A stretch of 25,269 nucleotides of DNA from a virus. The position numbers were made by a program, and so were the translations under genes. Numbering within the stretch: the stretch's first letter is position 1; every line of letters begins with the position of its first letter. Below are positions 1,265-25,153 of this stretch, in pieces. The notes below the pieces were generated by a model. That model had not been told where the DNA came from, made no database searches, and saw nothing but the letters and a program-made list of their open reading frames with translations. The stretch is taken from positions 1 through 25,269 of IMG/VR virus record IMGVR_UViG_3300048672_000710; one strand, written 5' to 3'.

Positions 1265-1819
1265 CTATCCCTCCGCATCCTTATAAATTTCTATCAAATA
1301 TTTTAGATTAAGTTCTTTTTGGGCGCTCATTGCAGCATACTCAGCAGCATAAGCAGCATACTCAGCAGCATAAGCAGCATAAGCAGCAGCATAAGCATAA
1401 GCAGCATAAGCAGCAGCATAAGCATACTCAGCAGCATAAGCAGCATAAGCAGCAGCATAAGCAGCAGCAGCAGCAGCATAAGCAGCATTTTTACATTTTC
1501 TCTTATTTTCTTCTGTGGGGTTCTGTAAATAATTATCAACGGCTTCTAATGCTAATCTTGGTCGTTTGTCTTCGGGATATCTATCTTCAAAAATATTCAA
1601 TACAGATTGAGCACACTTTAATCCAAATTTAACTGCTTCATTTTTTGTTGCAAACTTTTTCCAAACCCAGATTTTATCTTCATATGTGATATTATCTAGC
1701 TGTAGGAATTCGCTAATAGATAAATCTGTATCTTTGTAGTGGAGTAAATAGTTTTCATATCTATCTTTACATGGCCCTAAACTTGCAATGTATTCGTTTG
1801 TTATTCTTAGTTTGTTCAT
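1265..1819 (-). CDS. 184-residue protein with Ala/Tyr-rich tandem repeat
   Basis: Residues 1-108 are an ordinary globular sequence, with WVWKKFATKNEAVKFGLKCA and LALEAVDNYLQNPTEENKR in the middle. A low-complexity tract follows at about 112-167, built from AAYAA and AAEYA units, and then a normal 17-residue tail. In DNA the tract (about 1320-1485) is an imperfect repeat of GCAGCATAA-like units. The ALEAV...NPTEENKR-then-alanine pattern resembles Imm5-like immunity-protein domains found in phages and bacteria, a recollection I rate as moderate. ATG at 1819 follows GGGGGAG. The repeat is prone to length change by slippage. Confidence 0.75.
   Translation of the reverse strand: MNKLRITNEYIASLGPCKDRYENYLLHYKDTDLSISEFLQLDNITYEDKIWVWKKFATKNEAVKFGLKCAQSVLNIFEDRYPEDKRPRLALEAVDNYLQNPTEENKRKCKNAAYAAAAAAYAAAYAAYAAEYAYAAAYAAYAYAAAYAAYAAEYAAYAAEYAAMSAQKELNLKYLIEIYKDAEG
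1320..1485. repeat. Imperfect short tandem repeat encoding AAYAA units
   Basis: Runs of CAGCATAAG and CAGCATACT with 3-, 6-, 9- and 15-base periodicity. The repeat is open in several frames on both strands, which explains spurious reading frames here. It codes for the Ala/Tyr tract of the leftward gene. Confidence 0.8.
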
Positions 1820-9110: not shown

Positions 9111-9212
9111 TCATGCCAGCTCCCCCGACTCGATAAACCCGAAAATGCCTCACATTGCCTTTTTCTTGCAAGATTCATGCCTTAGTATGGCTGTCTGTGC
9201 AAGATTCATGCC
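9111..9212. repeat. TGCAAGATTCATGCC direct repeats
   Basis: Two exact 15-base copies (9167-9181 and 9198-9212) and a third partial copy ending in TTCATGCC (9110-9117). Related TTGCAAGA and CTTGCAT pieces follow to about 9270. Spacing of the full copies is 31 bases, close to three helical turns. Confidence 0.6.
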
Positions 9213-9334
9213 ATATCATGCTTGGTACAAGGCTTGCAAGAGACTAAACATGGCCCAAGACTTGCATTATTGCACAAAGCGTGCCAACAAAACTACGCCA
9301 ACGGGGAGTATAGGCCACAGTTGGCATATGAAAG

Positions 9335-9764: not shown

Positions 9765-9916
9765 CTAATGAGTTATATTAGAAGTTTTTAATGGCCTCAA
9801 ATGCAACCAATTCGATTTGAGGATATCCAAGACAAAATTGGGTATTGCTGGATACATGGTGTTTATATCCAATATTTTTGGCCTCGTCAGTTTTTACAGC
9901 AGTTAGAAGCTTGTGT

Positions 9917-10066
9917 CTCCGGCATTAACTAGGTTTACAAAAGCTTGAACCCCTGGCATTAACTAGCATTAGACTCCGGTAATAACTGGGCTTGGGCGCT
10001 TGCAATAACTGGCATTAGACTCCGGCATTAACCGGGCTTGTAACCTGGCCATAAAAACAGGCTCCG
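9917..10066. repeat. Iteron-like array, 23-bp period, core CTCCGGCATTAACT
   Basis: Copies of a 14-base core start at 9917, 9951, 9974, 9997 and 10020, with a weak sixth at 10043. After the first step (34 bases) the spacing is exactly 23 bases, about two helical turns. Units at 9974 and 10020 resemble each other more (both followed by GGGCTTG), as do 9951 and 9997 (both followed by GCATTAGA), giving a 46-base higher-order repeat. Additional single cores occur at 9453-9464 and on the minus strand inside two leftward genes. Probable binding array of a replication initiator or repressor. Confidence 0.7.
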
Positions 10067-10091: not shown

Positions 10092-10120
10092 TTGATTAGG
10101 CCAGCAACTTGTGATATAGT
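10092..10120 (+). promoter_or_regulatory. Strong promoter of the micro-ORF array
   Basis: -35 TTGATT (10092-10097), 17-base spacer, -10 TATAGT (10115-10120) preceded by TGA as extended -10. It is flanked by GAAGTTCC copies B and D. The first micro-ORF starts 51 bases downstream of the -10. Confidence 0.75.
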
Positions 10121-10171: not shown

Positions 10172-10333
10172 ATGAAGCCTCAATCAATATGCGATTGCAA
10201 TAATAAATCACATTCGATACATATATCGCATTATTTTCATATTAACATTCAGACGCGTCTACGTTTTATAGTACATTTGAAGAACAGGGTATTCAGACAG
10301 ATGACATATAGCAAAGAAGGATTTAGAATATGA
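10172..10333 (+). CDS. Micro-ORF 1 of the MKPQ array, 53 residues
   Basis: Begins MKPQSICDCNNKSHS and contains a basic alternating stretch RLRFIVHLKNRVFRQM near the C-terminus. AAAGG lies nine bases before the ATG. Its TGA overlaps the next ATG (ATGA). First member of the array behind the promoter at 10092-10120. Shares only MKPQ with its neighbours at the sequence level, plus a general pattern of a beta-type strand then a short helix in the second half. Function unknown. Confidence 0.55.
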   Translation: MKPQSICDCNNKSHSIHISHYFHINIQTRLRFIVHLKNRVFRQMTYSKEGFRI

Positions 10334-10482
10334 AGCCACAGAAAGACCTATACTTTGCATTATATATACCGTATAATAAAGCCGTAGTAATTGTTTCAAC
10401 GCCTCAAATATTGGAAATATCAGCAGACATTAGGCTTGAGATAAAACGATTAATGATACATAACTATGAGATTGCAATATGA
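10330..10482 (+). CDS. Micro-ORF 2 of the MKPQ array, 50 residues
   Basis: Begins MKPQKDLYFALYIPYNKAVV and ends NYEIAI. AAGGA lies ten bases upstream. It overlaps both neighbours by four bases (ATGA), so translation is probably coupled through the series. Less basic than the others; no known domain. Confidence 0.55.
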   Translation: MKPQKDLYFALYIPYNKAVVIVSTPQILEISADIRLEIKRLMIHNYEIAI

Positions 10483-10640
10483 AACCTCAATTAGATTATT
10501 CTTGGAGATTTAGGAAGTCTCTATACGTATCGGGAGATATAGGCCCAGAACGATGTTTACGTTTGTCGGTACATCTCAGGACTACAATATATTCATATCT
10601 TACTGAGTTTAAGACCCGCAACCATTGGAGAAAGGCTTAA
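10479..10640 (+). CDS. Micro-ORF 3 of the MKPQ array, 53 residues
   Basis: Begins MKPQLDYSWRFRKSLYVSGD; second half CLRLSVHLRTTIYSYL resembles the corresponding stretch of micro-ORF 1 in its alternating pattern. No clear Shine-Dalgarno, so it probably depends on coupling to micro-ORF 2. It ends WRKA, where AGAAAGGCTTAA is also the leader of the next unit. Very basic; function unknown. Confidence 0.55.
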   Translation: MKPQLDYSWRFRKSLYVSGDIGPERCLRLSVHLRTTIYSYLTEFKTRNHWRKA

Positions 10641-10643
10641 AAC

Positions 10644-10820
10644 ATGAGACCTCAGGAAGTTTTGCAATTATTTGAAGTTCAGATAAACCGACAATATCCA
10701 ATGGATATATTGAGCTATAATACTTATATATTTCGTACTATTAGTAATAAGGTGCACATTACATTGCAATTTAGTATTGGACTTGGTATTATGAAAAACT
10801 TTAATGGGCCTAAAACATGA
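10644..10820 (+). CDS. Micro-ORF 4 of the MKPQ array, 58 residues
   Basis: Begins MRPQEVLQLFEVQINRQYPM, with Lys2 replaced by Arg. The full leader AAAGGCTTAAAAC precedes its ATG. It ends GPKT with its TGA overlapping the ATG of a truncated unit. Alternating hydrophobic stretch KVHITLQFSI near residues 37-46. Function unknown. Confidence 0.55.
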   Translation: MRPQEVLQLFEVQINRQYPMDILSYNTYIFRTISNKVHITLQFSIGLGIMKNFNGPKT

Positions 10821-10849
10821 AACCTAAAAACAGGCAAAGAAAGGCTTAA
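10817..10849 (+). CDS. Micro-ORF 5, truncated unit of 10 residues
   Basis: Reads MKPKNRQRKA then TAA. It consists of a start module joined directly to an end module, with no body, and looks like the product of a deletion between repeated leaders. It may be a relic or simply a translation-coupling step to unit 6. Confidence 0.3.
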   Translation: MKPKNRQRKA

Positions 10850-10852
10850 AGC

Positions 10853-11017
10853 ATGAAACCGCAAAAAGTCTTAGATATAGTAAAGTATGATATGACGCAT
10901 AAATTATCCACGGACAGATGGTTTTTGATTGTATTCATACTAGAGACGACCTCAAACCGAGTAAGCAACGTGCTAGCATACTGCCTAAGATACGATGTAA
11001 GTGAAGGAACATTTTAA
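10853..11017 (+). CDS. Micro-ORF 6 of the MKPQ array, 54 residues
   Basis: Begins MKPQKVLDIVKYDMTHKLST, carrying the longest version of the conserved start (MKPQKVLD), shared with unit 8. Leader AAAGGCTTAAAGC precedes the ATG. Body includes WFLIVFILETTSNRV and a helical end. Function unknown. Confidence 0.6.
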   Translation: MKPQKVLDIVKYDMTHKLSTDRWFLIVFILETTSNRVSNVLAYCLRYDVSEGTF

Positions 11018-11045
11018 ACATATTTCCAAGAAAGAGGCTTAAGAC

Positions 11046-11207
11046 ATGAAACCACAAAAGATATTTTGCACAAAATACATAGAGCTAATAAACTGGGACC
11101 TACCTTGTGATATAACTAAAGGTTTAGCAGTCGCACAGCTTAAAATTAAACACGATGTTCGTAGGATGATGCGTAGCCGTTTTAGATATAATAGCCGTAA
11201 TAGCTAA
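11046..11207 (+). CDS. Micro-ORF 7 of the MKPQ array, 53 residues
   Basis: Begins MKPQKIFCTKYIELINWDLP; basic C-terminus (RRMMRSRFRYNSRNS). Leader GAGGCTTAAGAC precedes the ATG. Its last codons are the first copy of the 36-base tandem repeat that continues to about 11260, so the original 3' end may have been altered by that duplication. Confidence 0.55.
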   Translation: MKPQKIFCTKYIELINWDLPCDITKGLAVAQLKIKHDVRRMMRSRFRYNSRNS

Positions 11208-11306
11208 ATTGGCCGTTTTAGATATAATAGCCGTAATAGCTAAATTGGCCGTTTTAGCCATATTAGCTATTTTAGCCATATTAGCTATTTTAGCCATAAT
11301 AACTAA
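11176..11306. repeat. 36-base tandem duplication followed by 18-base repeats
   Basis: GCCGTTTTAGATATAATAGC-type unit at 11176-11211 repeated at 11212-11247, then a third partial copy at 11248 running into shorter copies of TTAGCCATATTAGCTATT. It is open in the + frame and encodes a hydrophobic Leu/Ala/Ile run fused in frame to micro-ORF 8. Looks like recent slippage or unequal recombination. Confidence 0.75.
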
Positions 11307-11331
11307 AATTTCACAAAAAGGTACTAAAAAC

Positions 11332-11487
11332 GTGAAACCGCAAAAAGTCTTAGATATGCTTAATGAATCTCAATTAACTGTATTTATGTTAAACCATGAC
11401 AGCATTTTTGATAATATATTTGATATGGTTGTAACCGTCAGAATAGAACATTTAGTACATAGGATTTTGGTCAGGAGAAAGGCTTAA
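11332..11487 (+). CDS. Micro-ORF 8 of the MKPQ array, 51 residues, GTG start
   Basis: Reads VKPQKVLDMLNESQLTVFML from a GTG where other units have ATG; AAAAAGG lies ten bases upstream. The same frame continues upstream to a TTG at 11209 through the tandem repeat, giving a 92-residue form with a repetitive hydrophobic N-terminus (AVLAILAILAIL). I prefer the GTG because it matches the array start. It ends VRRKA, like unit 3. Confidence 0.5.
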   Translation: MKPQKVLDMLNESQLTVFMLNHDSIFDNIFDMVVTVRIEHLVHRILVRRKA

Positions 11488-11514
11488 AACAAGGAACCCT
11501 CGGCAAAAGGCTTA
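11476..11514 (+). pseudogene. Degenerate leader of a lost micro-ORF
   Basis: AAAGGCTTAAAAC is followed by AAGGAACCC where other units have ATGAAACC, and then immediately by another AAAGGCTTAA leader. It reads as a decayed or recombined start module with no body. Confidence 0.45.
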
Positions 11515-11518
11515 AAAC

Positions 11519-11671
11519 ATGAAACCGCAAAAAGTATTTAATCAATCCGAATGGTATCAAATCCACAAGATGACCTCTGTGTTTAAGAGTGGAAGATACA
11601 ATAAAGCTCACGCAAAGCTTAAGCTTCATCTCTCTTTGTTTTTACATTACGGATGGGATTATGGCCGGTAA
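11519..11671 (+). CDS. Micro-ORF 9 of the MKPQ array, 50 residues
   Basis: Begins MKPQKVFNQSEWYQIHKMTS with a perfect leader AAAGGCTTAAAAC. Basic body AHAKLKLHLSLFLHYGW and end DYGR. After its stop, about 120 bases to 11790 lack a convincing gene; a 32-codon frame there (11673-11771) has no ribosome binding site. Confidence 0.55.
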   Translation: MKPQKVFNQSEWYQIHKMTSVFKSGRYNKAHAKLKLHLSLFLHYGWDYGR

Positions 11672-11790
11672 TATGGTACGAACAACCGGTAATAAGTCGC
11701 AAGCAGTTATAAGCCCGCAACCAGCCAAAAAACCCGGCAATAAGTACACAACCATGCAATATACCGCATAAGCTAAAAAAGGACCAATAT

Positions 11791-11970
11791 ATGAACCAAA
11801 TAATGCCACAAAAAAACGTATACCCTCTCTATAGCATGAGACATAATACAATTATGAAAATGACAATATCGGAAACTGGCCATCCATATGCCGTAGGAGG
11901 ATACGAGAGAGTTTCTTCGTTATTCAGAGGAATGCTTCTTATGCGATGGGTCAGTTTTAGCCGGCTGTAA
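11791..11970 (+). CDS. Micro-ORF 10 of the array, diverged start, 59 residues
   Basis: Begins MNQIMPQKNVYPLYS, so the conserved PQK follows a second Met at residue 5; either could be the start. AAAAAAGGA lies about ten bases upstream of the first ATG. Body includes GHPYAVGGYERVSS and ends SFSRL. Same length range and position logic as the other units, but more diverged. Confidence 0.5.
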   Translation: MNQIMPQKNVYPLYSMRHNTIMKMTISETGHPYAVGGYERVSSLFRGMLLMRWVSFSRL

Positions 11971-11983
11971 AGGAAGTTCCGAA

Positions 11984-12142
11984 ATGAAATCCCAGCAAAA
12001 ATATATCCTTGTGGCTAGATATAGGTATGCCTATTACAACTATCTGCGACACGATGCTAGTACTATAAGTAAACAATTAACCAGACACTCTCCGGTAAGA
12101 AGTACTATACGAATGTGGCTTTTTTATGTTCTTTACACGTAG
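11984..12142 (+). CDS. Micro-ORF 11 of the array, 52 residues
   Basis: Begins MKSQQKYILVARYRYAYYNY, a variant of MKPQK, and is very rich in Tyr and Arg. AAAGGAAG lies just upstream. It ends in a hydrophobic MWLFYVLYT. Function unknown. Confidence 0.5.
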   Translation: MKSQQKYILVARYRYAYYNYLRHDASTISKQLTRHSPVRSTIRMWLFYVLYT

Positions 12143-12160
12143 CTAAGAATCGGAGACTGA

Positions 12161-12337
12161 ATGGTCCCTCAAAAAACATTAAATATCTCAAATAGTGGGT
12201 TTAGCGTATCCATAAAACTTACCCTAATTAGCGAAGTTAATGGTGAAGATTCTATAAACACTTGTTGCGAACTACTATGCAATCTATGGAGCCAGCAATT
12301 GAGTTTGTACTACCTAATGCGAAACTTTCCCGCATAG
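12161..12337 (+). CDS. Micro-ORF 12, last unit of the array, 58 residues
   Basis: Begins MVPQKTLNISNSGFSVSIKL, with PQK kept; CGGAGA lies upstream. Body has a pair of cysteines (TCCELLC) and ends NFPA. It stops 12 bases from the end of the convergent gene at 12350-12841, with no terminator visible between them. Confidence 0.5.
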   Translation: MVPQKTLNISNSGFSVSIKLTLISEVNGEDSINTCCELLCNLWSQQLSLYYLMRNFPA

Positions 12338-12349
12338 CAGCAACAACGT

Positions 12350-12841
12350 CTACAAATCACTGCTCCAAAATAATCCTTCATGATGAGTCTTGTTCCACTT
12401 CATGCACATTTTCTCAAGCTCCTTACATATGCGGTAGTAATAATACTTATGCACCTTACCGCCCTTACACCGAATTCTTCCGTCTGAAAGCTTCTTTGTT
12501 TTTGATTTAAATCTTTTTGAATCTTCGGTTGGAATCTTTTTTATATAAGAGCCTATATCATATGACGGGACGCCACCGGCATGAATCTCCCATATTTGCC
12601 TTGCAAGCTCCCACGAACAGTTTGGAAGCTGTAGTGTGCGCCAGTCGTAGTGCCATAAAAAAGCAGATGCTGCCCGGTAATAAGTTAGAGTAGCTTCATC
12701 ATATCTTTCATGCCGTCTTAAAGCCTTATCTCGAAATAGGCCCTCATTCTTACCTTCGGGATATTCAATATCAACAAACCCACTTGCTTCCAGTTTTTTC
12801 CGCCATTTTTCCGCCAACTTCTTGTCTATATCTTGTTTCAT
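12350..12841 (-). CDS. 163-residue hypothetical protein, possible regulator
   Basis: Begins MKQDIDKKLAEKWRKKLEAS. Highly charged, helical, Trp-rich in the middle (FLWHYDWRTLQLPNCSWELA), with a segment RQIWEIHAGGVPSYDIGSYI around residues 81-100 whose spacing could be a helix-turn-helix (resembling GxSxxxIxxxL recognition helices), then a basic stretch (KRFKSKTKKL). It has its own divergent promoter region. A DNA-binding regulator of the adjacent divergent or array promoters is a reasonable guess, but I do not recognise the family. Confidence 0.65.
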   Translation of the reverse strand: MKQDIDKKLAEKWRKKLEASGFVDIEYPEGKNEGLFRDKALRRHERYDEATLTYYRAASAFLWHYDWRTLQLPNCSWELARQIWEIHAGGVPSYDIGSYIKKIPTEDSKRFKSKTKKLSDGRIRCKGGKVHKYYYYRICKELEKMCMKWNKTHHEGLFWSSDL

Positions 12842-19618: not shown

Positions 19619-20191
19619 ATGTCAGACACTAAAGACCTAGCGGTTCAATTATTAGCTCTAAGAATGGATACTGCCTTAGAACACGGCATTGATACCAATT
19701 GCAGAGTTATTCAAATAGTGGGTCAAATAGACCAAGAAATGTTCAAAAGAGTTGATGCCGGGCTAACTATGTTAGAAGACGGCTCTAGAAAGTCTATTAT
19801 ACTTAGAATAAACTCTGAAGGCGGCAACCCAGAAGATGCACTAGCTATTATAGGCAGAATGCGAGGCTCTACGTGTAAGATTATTACAGAAGCATACGGA
19901 GATTGCTCTAGCGCCGCAACAATGGTGTTTGTAGCAGGCCACAAGCGCCGCATGAGCGAGTTTTGCAGGTTTATGACACATCAATCAAGCTATGAACTTG
20001 TAGGAACTCACGCACAGATAAGCTCTTACGTAGCTCAAGCTGAAAAAGAAGAAAAGATTTGGGCTTCTTTACTTGGAAGATTTACTAAATACCCAGCTGA
20101 ACATTGGTATGAACTACATAAAGCCGGTAAAGATATTTTTATTGTTCCGGACGATTGTACAAAATACGGAATAACCGACGAAGTTTTTTAA
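19619..20191 (+). CDS. ClpP-like serine protease (cytoplasmic)
   Basis: A 190-residue protein of the ClpP/crotonase fold. INSEGGNPEDALAI at 64-77 corresponds to the usual INSPGG loop, with Pro replaced by Glu. GDCSSAATMVFVAG at 94-107 places the nucleophile at Ser98 by alignment with GQAASMG, and FMTHQSS at 118-124 supplies His121, as in ClpP RVMIHQ. No signal peptide. The likely acid is in the C-terminal DDCTKYGITDEV. In tailed phages such proteases often mature the prohead. This one lies upstream of the terminase rather than downstream of the portal. ATG directly follows the upstream stop. Confidence 0.8.
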   Translation: MSDTKDLAVQLLALRMDTALEHGIDTNCRVIQIVGQIDQEMFKRVDAGLTMLEDGSRKSIILRINSEGGNPEDALAIIGRMRGSTCKIITEAYGDCSSAATMVFVAGHKRRMSEFCRFMTHQSSYELVGTHAQISSYVAQAEKEEKIWASLLGRFTKYPAEHWYELHKAGKDIFIVPDDCTKYGITDEVF

Positions 20192-20202
20192 AAGGAGACA
20201 AA

Positions 20203-20436
20203 ATGCAAGAGAGTTTTTCACAAACAAGTTTAAAAAGAATAGCTCGAATGTCAAAAAACGAGCTAATTACCATGGTTATATCAATTAGTAACTATGCCGA
20301 ACAACAAAAAGCTGCTTCATTACTTCTTTTAGGCCGATTGGAACAAGTAAACGCAATTTTAACAGAAGAACAAATTAAACAACTTGCCCCTGCGGCAAAT
20401 ACAGAGCCTCAAGAAGGGCAAAAGGAAGTAAAATGA
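20203..20436 (+). CDS. 77-residue helical protein between two ClpP-like genes
   Basis: Begins MQESFSQTSLKRIARMSKNE; ATG has AAAGGAG seven bases upstream, better than an extension to 20155 that overlaps the protease. Helical with a Lys/Gln-rich middle (ISNYAEQQKAASLLLLGRLE) and a flexible tail. The stop overlaps the second ClpP-like start (ATGA). Possibly a partner of one of the proteases. Confidence 0.65.
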   Translation: MQESFSQTSLKRIARMSKNELITMVISISNYAEQQKAASLLLLGRLEQVNAILTEEQIKQLAPAANTEPQEGQKEVK

Positions 20437-21221
20437 AATTATTAGCAATATTGGCGGCATTATTTAACGTATCTTATGCCCAATCAACAGCAATTATACC
20501 AAAATACTCTATAAATCTTAATGCTGATAACAATGTAGTGTTTAGAGGCGAAGTAAACCAGGCTAGTGTATCAAAAGCTGAAGCAGAAATTACAGCTTTG
20601 GTGGTAAAAAGAGGGAGTAAGAACTATCCAATATACCTTACTATAGATAGCCCCGGCGGAGAGATTGAGACTGGTTTAGATTTTATTCGATACGTCAAAC
20701 AGTATAAGAACATTGATACTATAACTATTTTTGCGGCATCAATGGCAAGCGCTATAGTGGAGGCGCTACCAGGCCGAAGATACGTAGTAGAAGACGGAGT
20801 TTTGATGTTTCATAGAGCTAGAGGCGGTTTTCAAGGACAATTTGAAGACGGAGAAGTTGAATCTAGGCTAAATCTTGCCAAATCTATGGTTAGAGGAATG
20901 GAAAAAGTTAATGCCAGTAGAATGGGAATTAGCTTAACAGAATATAAGTTCTTAGTAAAAGACGAACTCTGGATTCATGACGCCAAAAACGTAGAAATGA
21001 ACGCAGCGGACGCCATGGTAGAAGTTAAATGCTCGCCAGAATTAGTAGATAGTAAGGAAACTTTAGAAGTACAGTTTATGATTTTTACAATACAATTAGA
21101 ATTTTCAAAATGTCCCTTGTTAAGGGCTGGAAACGGTAAAAACAAAAAAGACAGCGCATTTATAATTAAAAATCAAAAAGAAATGAAAGAAAAATACCCA
21201 ACATTAAAGGAGTTACATTAA
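20433..21221 (+). CDS. ClpP/SppA-like serine protease with signal peptide
   Basis: A 262-residue protein with a clear Sec signal peptide, MKLLAILAALFNVSYA, cut near Ala16. The mature part has IDSPGGEIETGLDF (about 71-84), FAASMASAIVEALPG (100-114) with nucleophile Ser103, and MFHRARGG (125-132) with His127, all in the right ClpP order. Residues 186-200 (NVEMNAADAMVEVKC) complete the fold. A C-terminal region of about 60 residues is Lys-rich. An exported ClpP-type protease is unusual in the phage packaging block; it may act on periplasmic or outer-membrane targets. ATG overlaps the upstream stop. Confidence 0.8.
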   Translation: MKLLAILAALFNVSYAQSTAIIPKYSINLNADNNVVFRGEVNQASVSKAEAEITALVVKRGSKNYPIYLTIDSPGGEIETGLDFIRYVKQYKNIDTITIFAASMASAIVEALPGRRYVVEDGVLMFHRARGGFQGQFEDGEVESRLNLAKSMVRGMEKVNASRMGISLTEYKFLVKDELWIHDAKNVEMNAADAMVEVKCSPELVDSKETLEVQFMIFTIQLEFSKCPLLRAGNGKNKKDSAFIIKNQKEMKEKYPTLKELH

Positions 21222-23316: not shown

Positions 23317-23802
23317 ATGTTTAATGTATCTGATTATGAATGGTATAAAGGCTCAAATACCCACCAAAAGCTTTTTAATTATGTAAAATACCTTGATTTG
23401 CATCAAAATTACCGCCAAATGCAGAATCTACGATTTATGCGACTGTACGGCAACCTAGAGTTTACTGGCCTTACAATGCAAAACTTCTTCAGAACAGAAC
23501 CTAGCTATAATATTCAAAATCGAGTCACTTTAAACATAGTAGCTTCTATGGTTGATACTGCAACTAGCAAGATTACTGCCGCAAAACCTCGCCCATACTT
23601 CCTTACTTCCGGCGCAGACTGGTCTTTAAAACGCAAAGGAAAAAAGCTGACAAAATTTATTGATGGAGCTTTTTACGGCGCTAAGTTTTACGAAAAAGCT
23701 TCTCAGGCCTTTAAAGATGCGGCAATATTTGGAACTGGAGCCGTAAAAATATACAATGATAACGGCAAAATTAATTTTTATCGACGAAATTATGGTAGAT
23801 GA
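23317..23802 (+). CDS. Portal protein, N-terminal part (frame 1)
   Basis: 161 codons in this frame. Residues about 65-145 contain PSYNIQNRVTLNIVASMVDTATSKI, AAKPRPYFL and GADWSLKRKGKKLTKFIDGAFYGAKFYEKA, typical of a portal N-terminal domain. The protein then reads INFYRRNYGR and stops. The homologous continuation (FIDEIMVDDMETIYG...) is open in the +1 frame from 23756, so this looks like one gene broken at 23775-23779 or expressed by frameshifting. The portal forms the dodecameric channel at the head vertex. Confidence 0.75.
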   Translation: MFNVSDYEWYKGSNTHQKLFNYVKYLDLHQNYRQMQNLRFMRLYGNLEFTGLTMQNFFRTEPSYNIQNRVTLNIVASMVDTATSKITAAKPRPYFLTSGADWSLKRKGKKLTKFIDGAFYGAKFYEKASQAFKDAAIFGTGAVKIYNDNGKINFYRRNYGR

Positions 23803-25153
23803 TATGGAAACCATTTACGGGGAGCCACGTCAAATACACCAAAGAAAATGGATTCACAAAGAAACTTTAAAAGCTATGTTCCCCGGCTCCGCTGGAGCTA
23901 TTGACGCCGCTACTAATGATTTAGTCGATGGCGGTGTTCAAGAATATGCCACACGTAACGGCGATATGATGCTTGTGATAGAGTCTTGGAAGCTTCCAAA
24001 CGCAGACGGAAAGAACGGTAAACATTCTATCTGTATATCTAACGAAACCTTATTTGAAGAAAAATGGGACAAAGATTATTTTCCGTTTGTATTTTTTAAA
24101 TGGAACTCTAAACCTATCGGATTTTTTGGACAGGGAATTGCGGAGCAGCTTACAGGCCTTCAATTAGAGATTAACAAAATCATGAGAACTATCCAAGTTT
24201 CAATGCATTTGGTAAGCGTCCCTAAGATTTTTGTCGAAGCTTCCTCTAAGGTCGTTAGCGCCCACTTAAATAACAAGATTGGCGGCATTATCAAGTATGC
24301 GGGACAACCCCCAACAGAAGGCAAATTAGGCTCTATTCCTGCAGAATTATTTGCTCATTTAGACAGATTATATGAACGTGCCTATGAGATTGTAGGTATT
24401 AGCCAACTTTCGGCACAAAGTGAAAAGCCTGCAGGCCTAAATTCTGGTAAAGCTCTTAGAACTTATGCAAATATTGAGTCTGAAAGATTTCAAACTGTAG
24501 AAAAAGACTATCAAAATCAGTTTATTACCGCATCTAAAATAATGATTGACCTTATTAAAGACATCGCTAAAGATGACCCTGATTTTAAACTTAATGTTCC
24601 CGGCAAGAAGTTTTTAGAAACCATTAAATGGCAAGACGTAAGCATGGAAGATGACCAATACATGATGCAAATCTTTCCAACGAATAGCCTATCCGAAGAC
24701 CCATCTTCAAGACTTCAAGAAGTTCAAGAATTGCTACAAGCTGGTTTTATTGCTAAAGAAGACGGGCTTAAGTTGCTAGACTATCCGGATTTAGAAGGCT
24801 TCTACAATATGCAAAATGCAGGAGCAGAAGACATAGACCGTATGATAGAACTTATGGTAGAAAAAGGAGAGTATCAATCTCCAGAACCGTATCAAAATCT
24901 GCAATATGGCATTACCAAAATGCAACAAGCTTATTTAATGTATCGTCAAGACAGTGCTCCAGAAGAGATTTTAGACCTTTTTAGACGATGGATTGAAGAT
25001 GCTAAAGAGCTTATGGATAAAGCATCTGCGGAAGTACAGGCAATGCAGCAAGCGGCTCAGGCCCAAGCTGCTCAGCCACAAGCTAACCCAGCTCCTGCCC
25101 CTGTTTCTGATTTATTACCAAATGCCCCCGGTGCGGCACAAGCACCCCAATAA
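23756..25153 (+). CDS. Portal protein, C-terminal part (frame +1)
   Basis: About 465 codons are open in this frame; the useful sequence begins at FIDEIMVDD (about residue 8) and includes YGEPRQIHQRKWIHKE, GFFGQGIAEQLTGLQLEINK, GLNSGKALRTYANIE and a Gln/Ala/Pro-rich tail. GxGiaEql..lQ..iN is a conserved feature of portal proteins. No convincing ribosome binding site precedes the candidate internal starts, for example the ATG of MVDDMET at 23791. The fragment therefore probably depends on the upstream reading frame. See the frame-break finding. Confidence 0.85.
   Translation: MITAKLIFIDEIMVDDMETIYGEPRQIHQRKWIHKETLKAMFPGSAGAIDAATNDLVDGGVQEYATRNGDMMLVIESWKLPNADGKNGKHSICISNETLFEEKWDKDYFPFVFFKWNSKPIGFFGQGIAEQLTGLQLEINKIMRTIQVSMHLVSVPKIFVEASSKVVSAHLNNKIGGIIKYAGQPPTEGKLGSIPAELFAHLDRLYERAYEIVGISQLSAQSEKPAGLNSGKALRTYANIESERFQTVEKDYQNQFITASKIMIDLIKDIAKDDPDFKLNVPGKKFLETIKWQDVSMEDDQYMMQIFPTNSLSEDPSSRLQEVQELLQAGFIAKEDGLKLLDYPDLEGFYNMQNAGAEDIDRMIELMVEKGEYQSPEPYQNLQYGITKMQQAYLMYRQDSAPEEILDLFRRWIEDAKELMDKASAEVQAMQQAAQAQAAQPQANPAPAPVSDLLPNAPGAAQAPQ

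What the first reader, a model, noticed from the sequence alone, without database searches (positions are those of the whole stretch)
10172..12337. Tandem array of about a dozen MKPQ micro-ORFs with a shared start module and divergent bodies
Seen: consecutive + strand frames of 50-59 codons starting at 10172, 10330, 10479, 10644, 10853, 11046, 11332 (GTG), 11519, 11791, 11984 and 12161, plus a 10-codon remnant at 10817 and a dead leader at 11476. Most begin MKPQ(K) or a one-step variant (MRPQ, MKSQQ, MVPQK, MPQK). The DNA leader AAAGGCTTAAAACATGAAAC recurs, and junctions often overlap by ATGA. The bodies differ almost completely, though many share an alternating hydrophobic/basic stretch in the second half. 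Inference: a modular, recombining family of microproteins, diversified behind a constant translation-start cassette, one promoter upstream. Possible roles are host takeover peptides, anti-defence peptides, or RNA-level functions. I know of no described system like it.
Basis: partly seen in the sequence, partly recalled or inferred. Interest (0 to 1): 0.88.

Follow-up and report, generated by a model that had tools for sequence, protein, structure and literature searches.

The report
Phage array of diversified MKPQ microproteins
An uncultured phage carries eleven tiny genes in a row that all begin with nearly the same four amino acids (MKPQ) but then differ almost completely; statistics say they are real, selected proteins, yet no relative or function could be found, so they look like a private, fast-diversifying toolkit.

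Summary
The array is real. Eleven + strand frames of 50-59 codons run head to tail from 10172 to 12337; dinucleotide shuffles never exceed a chain of 5. There are no stops in 547 in-frame codons, against 49 and 59 in the other two + frames. Ten of eleven units have a Shine-Dalgarno-like stretch, most 8 nt before the start. The constant part is conserved mainly as protein: Pro-Gln is kept while the four-fold site of the Pro codon is saturated. The bodies cannot be aligned with each other and their composition is near that of random translation. They do carry a strong beta-type hydrophobic alternation that appears in the coding frame only (z 5.6, other frames 0.9 or less). I therefore read it as a translated, tandemly duplicated, rapidly diverging family of small, mostly basic proteins, not a DNA or RNA repeat. 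No relative turned up in about 25 sister-phage records, many of them fragments, or in other collections. Function is inferred only; host-interaction effectors are my best guess. Side finding: clusters of sigma54-type promoter-like sites in this phage family.

The parts
10172..10333 (+). unit 1, 53 aa, MKPQS...
   Evidence: SD GAAAGG 8 nt upstream
10330..10482 (+). unit 2, 50 aa, MKPQKD...; ATGA overlap with unit 1
   Evidence: SD AAGGA 8 nt upstream
10479..10640 (+). unit 3, 53 aa, MKPQLD...; ATGA overlap with unit 2; no clear SD, probably translationally coupled
10644..10820 (+). unit 4, 58 aa, MRPQEV...
10817..10849 (+). 10-codon remnant of a unit start (MKPKNRQRKA)
   Evidence: sequence; repeat family D3
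10853..11017 (+). unit 5, 54 aa, MKPQKVLD...; 25 nt of coding start identical to unit 7
11046..11207 (+). unit 6, 53 aa, MKPQKI...
11176..11298 (+). tandem repeat grown from the 3' end of unit 6 (36-bp unit, 2.3 copies at 100%, then degenerate 9- and 18-bp units); signature of slippage or duplication
   Evidence: RNA fold z -2.4
11332..11487 (+). unit 7, 51 aa, GTG start, VKPQKVLD...
11477..11503 (+). dead leader copy, ATG replaced by AGG
   Evidence: sequence; start-region repeats
11519..11671 (+). unit 8, 50 aa, MKPQKVF...; the only complete 20-nt leader
11791..11970 (+). unit 9, 59 aa, MNQIMPQKN...
11984..12142 (+). unit 10, 52 aa, MKSQQK...
12161..12337 (+). unit 11, 58 aa, MVPQKT...
10092..10120 (+). 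candidate sigma70-type promoter for the array (TTGATT-17-TATAGT, extended -10); not above chance as a class
9167..9286 (.). cluster of sigma54-type (-24/-12) promoter-like sites in the divergent intergenic region; the best sites face left, one weaker site (9251) faces the array

Best explanation
The locus is a lineage-specific multigene family. Eleven short genes arose by tandem duplication, and each is translated from its own start site into a 50-59 aa, mostly basic protein with a conserved N-terminal (M)KPQ(K)[VI][LF] tag and a body diverged beyond alignment. What selection has kept in the bodies is an open frame, a length of about 53 residues and amphipathic beta-strand-like patterning. Shown statistically: reality of the array, frame openness, protein-level constraint on Pro-Gln, in-frame beta-type alternation, saturation between units. 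Inferred: the array lies in an accessory slot of a phage genome and is expressed as one operon, and the products are host-interaction effectors (takeover or counter-defence). In that reading the constant N-terminus serves a shared step (docking, stability or initiation), while the bodies diversify through tandem duplication, slippage and recombination under pressure to change targets or escape recognition.
For: Chain of 11 ORFs against a null maximum of 5; 0 stops in 547 codons against 49 and 59 in the other + frames; narrow lengths. SD-like stretch at 5-10 nt for ten of eleven units. Pro-Gln codons: positions 1 and 2 at 0.82-1.0 mean identity, third position of Pro at 0.22, the level expected by chance. 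Beta-periodicity hydrophobic moment (170 degrees, window 12) z = 5.6 in frame, 0.9 or less in the other five frames; sets of pieces of ordinary genes of this phage average -1.1, maximum 0.6. Reduced-alphabet 18-residue motif in the bodies scores 84 against shuffles 61, sd 4, maximum 72. Ten of eleven products are net positive. Leader remnants and the 36-bp tandem duplication point to duplication or slippage. No RNA structure in unit windows. Slot: the homologue of the neighbouring gene 12350-12841 lies next to a sigma54-like cluster in relative G022 without the array.
Against: Codon and amino-acid usage of the bodies is close to random translation, and their mean codon score is below that of every other phage gene tested. 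Body-only leave-one-out profiles find no other member. Pairwise body similarity is not significant or marginal. Neither AlphaFold2 model supports a beta fold: one long helix (unit 7, pLDDT 79, pTM 0.42) and two helices (unit 2, pLDDT 69, pTM 0.37), from uninformative alignments. No relative of the array was found, so no dN/dS test was possible. No direct evidence bears on function or on a single operon.
Confidence: 0.5

Rival explanations
1. Translated but functionally loose ORFs: a start module (SD plus ATG-KPQ) copied repeatedly into sequence that is otherwise little constrained, giving near-random, young peptides kept only for being translated, for example as a reservoir for new genes or to shield the mRNA.
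For: Amino-acid composition near random translation and weak codon signal; bodies not alignable; duplicated start remnants.
Against: In-frame beta alternation, z 5.6, absent from the other frames; 0 stops in 547 codons and narrow lengths; Pro-Gln conserved at a divergence where synonymous sites are saturated.
Confidence: 0.2
2. Each unit is a different kind of small phage protein (for example anti-defence or RNA-polymerase inhibitors) that acquired a shared start sequence by recombination, so the bodies are not homologous at all.
For: Similarity falls from about 0.7-0.8 to background within roughly 20 nt after the start; the 10853 and 11332 units share 25 nt and then nothing; start-associated sequences in Cluster K mycobacteriophages precede unrelated genes (PMC3203893).
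Against: Uniform 50-59 codon length and a shared alternation pattern suggest one architecture; no body matches any Pfam, PHROGs, NCBIfam or PADLOC family.
Confidence: 0.2
3. A DNA or RNA repeat system (binding sites, origin, regulatory RNA) in which the frames are incidental.
For: Repeated leader DNA; nearby tandem repeats.
Against: Openness, length and in-frame signals; constraint follows codon positions; no RNA structure above shuffles in unit windows; no Rfam match.
Confidence: 0.05

Closest known systems
Start-Associated Sequences (SAS/ESAS) of Cluster K mycobacteriophages (PMC3203893)
   Same: A short repeated sequence sits at the ribosome-binding site directly before start codons of many non-structural phage genes, sometimes containing the stop of the upstream gene; function unknown.
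   Different: SAS is a 13-bp upstream DNA motif in 11-19 copies before genes of different families, spread over the right half of the genome; here conservation reaches into the protein (KPQK), the upstream part is weak, and all genes are 50-59 codons in one tandem array.
Mobile regulatory cassettes in T4-type phages (known to me from memory; only papers mentioning the phrase were found)
   Same: Repeated regulatory cassettes that could mediate shuffling of small accessory genes.
   Different: Those are promoter plus stem-loop cassettes; no such stem-loop was found here and the constant part is largely coding.
Constant-leader, hypervariable-core peptide families such as prochlorosin RiPP precursors (from general knowledge)
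   Same: Multigene families with a fixed N-terminus and fast-diversifying C-terminus.
   Different: The constant part is only about 4-8 residues, not a leader peptide; no modification enzyme was recognised in the window; bodies have no cysteine or serine core pattern by eye.
Phage early host-takeover or counter-defence small-gene clusters (from general knowledge)
   Same: Tandem operon of small, mostly unrelated orphan genes with SDs in an accessory region.
   Different: Such clusters normally lack a shared N-terminal motif, a uniform length and a common residue pattern.

Membership tests
Start-Associated Sequences (Cluster K type) | conserved non-coding sequence occupying the RBS of many genes | tested here: inconclusive
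   An AAAGGCTTAAAAC-like leader is clear in about half of the units; elsewhere only an SD remains.
Start-Associated Sequences (Cluster K type) | consensus GGGATAGGAGCCC | tested here: not met
   The leaders read AAAGGCTTAAAAC.
Start-Associated Sequences (Cluster K type) | associated genes belong to different families | tested here: inconclusive
   Bodies are not alignable but share length and residue patterning.
Known protein family (Pfam, PHROGs, NCBIfam, PADLOC) | profile match at a usual threshold | tested here: not met
   No match for the units beyond chance-level scores; the 11791 unit was scanned only.
Phage host-takeover or counter-defence cluster | early expression and effect on the host or its defences | not testable with these tools
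   Needs transcriptomics and expression assays.
RiPP precursor family | leader of about 15 or more residues and a neighbouring modification enzyme | tested here: inconclusive
   The conserved part is 4-8 residues, and none of the flanking genes scanned matched such an enzyme, but the window is a genome fragment.
Regulatory RNA repeat | structure or Rfam match | tested here: not met
   Rfam 0 matches; five unit windows fold with z between -1.5 and +0.9.

The most novel reading that the evidence does not exclude
A phage-borne diversification locus: small proteins share a short constant N-terminal tag that docks them to one common partner or pathway, while hypervariable beta-patterned bodies are generated by tandem duplication and recombination behind it, giving the phage a repertoire of alternative effectors against changing hosts or defences.
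Probability: 0.2. Interest if true: 0.88.

Novelty: new variant of a known kind. Interest (0 to 1): 0.6.

Why it matters
Lineage-specific arrays of tiny phage proteins are a likely source of takeover and counter-defence factors but are usually dismissed as spurious ORFs. This locus shows that such ORFs can be separated from noise without any homologue by three internal tests: openness and length, codon-position pattern of the constant tag, and frame-specific hydrophobic periodicity. If the diversified-effector reading holds, it would be a simple way for a phage to keep a repertoire of variable proteins behind one fixed tag.

Tried and rejected
Strict and loosened leader patterns in viral contigs and a loosened one in genome contigs: no array found. 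Of the loosened hits, L014-L019 give only short frames (9-30 codons) and are read as chance. A double-MKPQ pattern found one unrelated contig, L010, with two adjacent 55-aa MKPQK frames and 25/27 nt similarity to one leader; the bodies are unrelated, so it was left as possible coincidence. That pattern was too strict: it would not have matched this window's own spacing. Body homology was tested by pairwise protein, pairwise DNA and leave-one-out profiles: not significant, marginal (p 0.03-0.045) for ungapped 14-residue blocks only. Structure prediction: low-confidence helices, not interpreted and not sent to fold search. Units in about 25 related records: none by pattern, profile or chain search; one search had no positive control, and many records are fragments not covering the slot. 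blastn of the array in phages and plasmids and tblastn of units 1-8 joined in phages: nothing meaningful. Fragmented long repeat gene rejected: units lie in three different frames and nearly all have their own SD.

Full report
What was checked. The window is a 25,269-base virus record with a terminase, a portal, a DUF5906 primase, a PDDEXK protein, an SLT transglycosylase and a MoxR-type AAA/VWA pair. It has no close relative in the annotated phage collection; the terminase reaches only about 24% identity there. The left half is coded on the - strand, the right half mostly on +. The array lies between the two, 10172-12337, on +.

A chain of eleven same-strand ORFs of 45-62 aa was compared with 1000 dinucleotide shuffles, whose longest chain was 5 (mean 0.9); the opposite strand gives 3. 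In 547 codons downstream of the tag there is no stop in frame, against 49 and 59 in the other two + frames. Ten of eleven units have an SD-like stretch at 5-10 nt, mostly exactly 8; unit 3 has none and overlaps its neighbour by ATGA.

Protein or DNA? Three internal tests favour protein. First, openness and a length range of only 50-59 codons. Second, the tag: codon positions 1 and 2 of Pro-Gln have mean pairwise identity 0.82-1.0, while the third position of Pro is at 0.22, about the level of chance; the non-coding leader just upstream averages only about 0.5. A column-permutation test of this three-base pattern over codons 2-5 is borderline (p = 0.05, twelve columns), so the argument rests on the codons themselves. 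Third, residue patterning: the bodies have a far stronger beta-type (170 degree) hydrophobic moment than shuffles of themselves, z = 5.6, and the other five frames do not (0.9 or less); sets of equally long pieces of the phage's ordinary proteins average -1.1. A reduced-alphabet motif search agrees (84 against 61, sd 4). Units 1, 2, 3, 4 and 8 carry the signal most clearly; units 5, 7 and 9 do not show it alone.

What speaks against ordinary genes. Body amino-acid composition is close to random translation of this base composition, first-position G is not enriched, and the mean codon score (-0.10) is below that of every gene tested (lowest 0.04), though two units reach 0.07. Sequence similarity between bodies is absent at DNA level (p = 0.3) and at best marginal at protein level; body-only leave-one-out profiles never recover the missing member. 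The family is therefore old relative to its divergence rate, or the bodies are not homologous. The two AlphaFold2 models are helical with low confidence from alignments that carry almost no information; I draw no structural conclusion and note that they do not support the beta reading.

How it may have formed. Two broken copies of the start region, a perfect 36-bp tandem duplication grown from the 3' end of unit 6, and 25 nt of identical coding start between units 5 and 7 followed by unrelated sequence point to duplication and slippage, possibly with recombination at the start. The sharp boundary between units 5 and 7 could also arise from selection on the first eight codons.

Relatives. A profile of three terminases found 29 loci, including records of 49-57 kb. 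Mapping of window genes shows that the neighbour gene 12350-12841 has counterparts in G015, G021 and G022; in G022 it lies close to a sigma54-like cluster without an array. No record has MKPQ tandem starts, a comparable chain of small ORFs (next best 4) or a convincing profile hit. The relatives are at most about 66% identical in the terminase, the closest (L001) is a 6.7-kb fragment that does not cover the slot, and one search had no positive control, so absence says little about close kin.

Function. Nothing is shown. Mostly basic, short, diversified proteins in an accessory slot fit host-interaction effectors best among known phage biology; that step is inference. Of the 0.5 confidence on the best explanation, most belongs to 'translated, selected, diversified family' (which alone I would put near 0.8) and much less to the role.

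Comparison with known systems. The nearest described arrangement found is the Start-Associated Sequence of Cluster K mycobacteriophages (PMC3203893), which works like this at the level of a repeated start region but fails the membership test on its consensus and is non-coding. No protein family library matched.

Noticed in passing
window 9167-9286; L061:18981-19271 and L059:1-127 (G012); L072:575-905 (G022); L048:3431-3594 (G003); L052:8168-8299 (G004): Clusters of sigma54-type (-24/-12) promoter-like sites (TGGCAYG-N4-TTGCA), often on both strands; counts in these records exceed Markov-resampled sequence (window 7 against 1.4, L061 12 against 1.4, L072 13 against 2.4) and the reversed motif gives none. 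Two literature searches found no description of such clusters in phages.
   Followed up: partly
window 23317-23802 and 23756-25153: The portal gene is split into two overlapping frames, while relative L001 has one 607-aa frame: an assembly indel or a real frameshift.
   Followed up: no
window 1265-1819 (-): 184-aa protein with a long Ala-Ala-Tyr-rich repeat (AAYAAEYAAY...) encoded by 9- and 21-bp tandem repeats.
   Followed up: no
window 9907-10044: Degenerate 23-bp repeats (CTGGCATTAACTAGCATTAGACTCC) just upstream of the array, with related CCGGTAATAA motifs at 11686-11745.
   Followed up: no
L010:5863-6194: Unrelated contig with two adjacent 55-aa frames both starting MKPQK, overlapping by ATGA; the second start region matches the window leader at 25 of 27 nt.
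   Followed up: partly
window 19619-20191 and 20433-21221: Two proteins that I read as ClpP/SppA-like lie in tandem before the terminase; counterparts of one or both occur in many relatives.
   Followed up: no
L057:6363-7427 (G011): A relative of this phage carries an integrase-like (tyrosine recombinase) gene in the divergent region (my reading of the sequence, not searched), so some members may be temperate.
   Followed up: no
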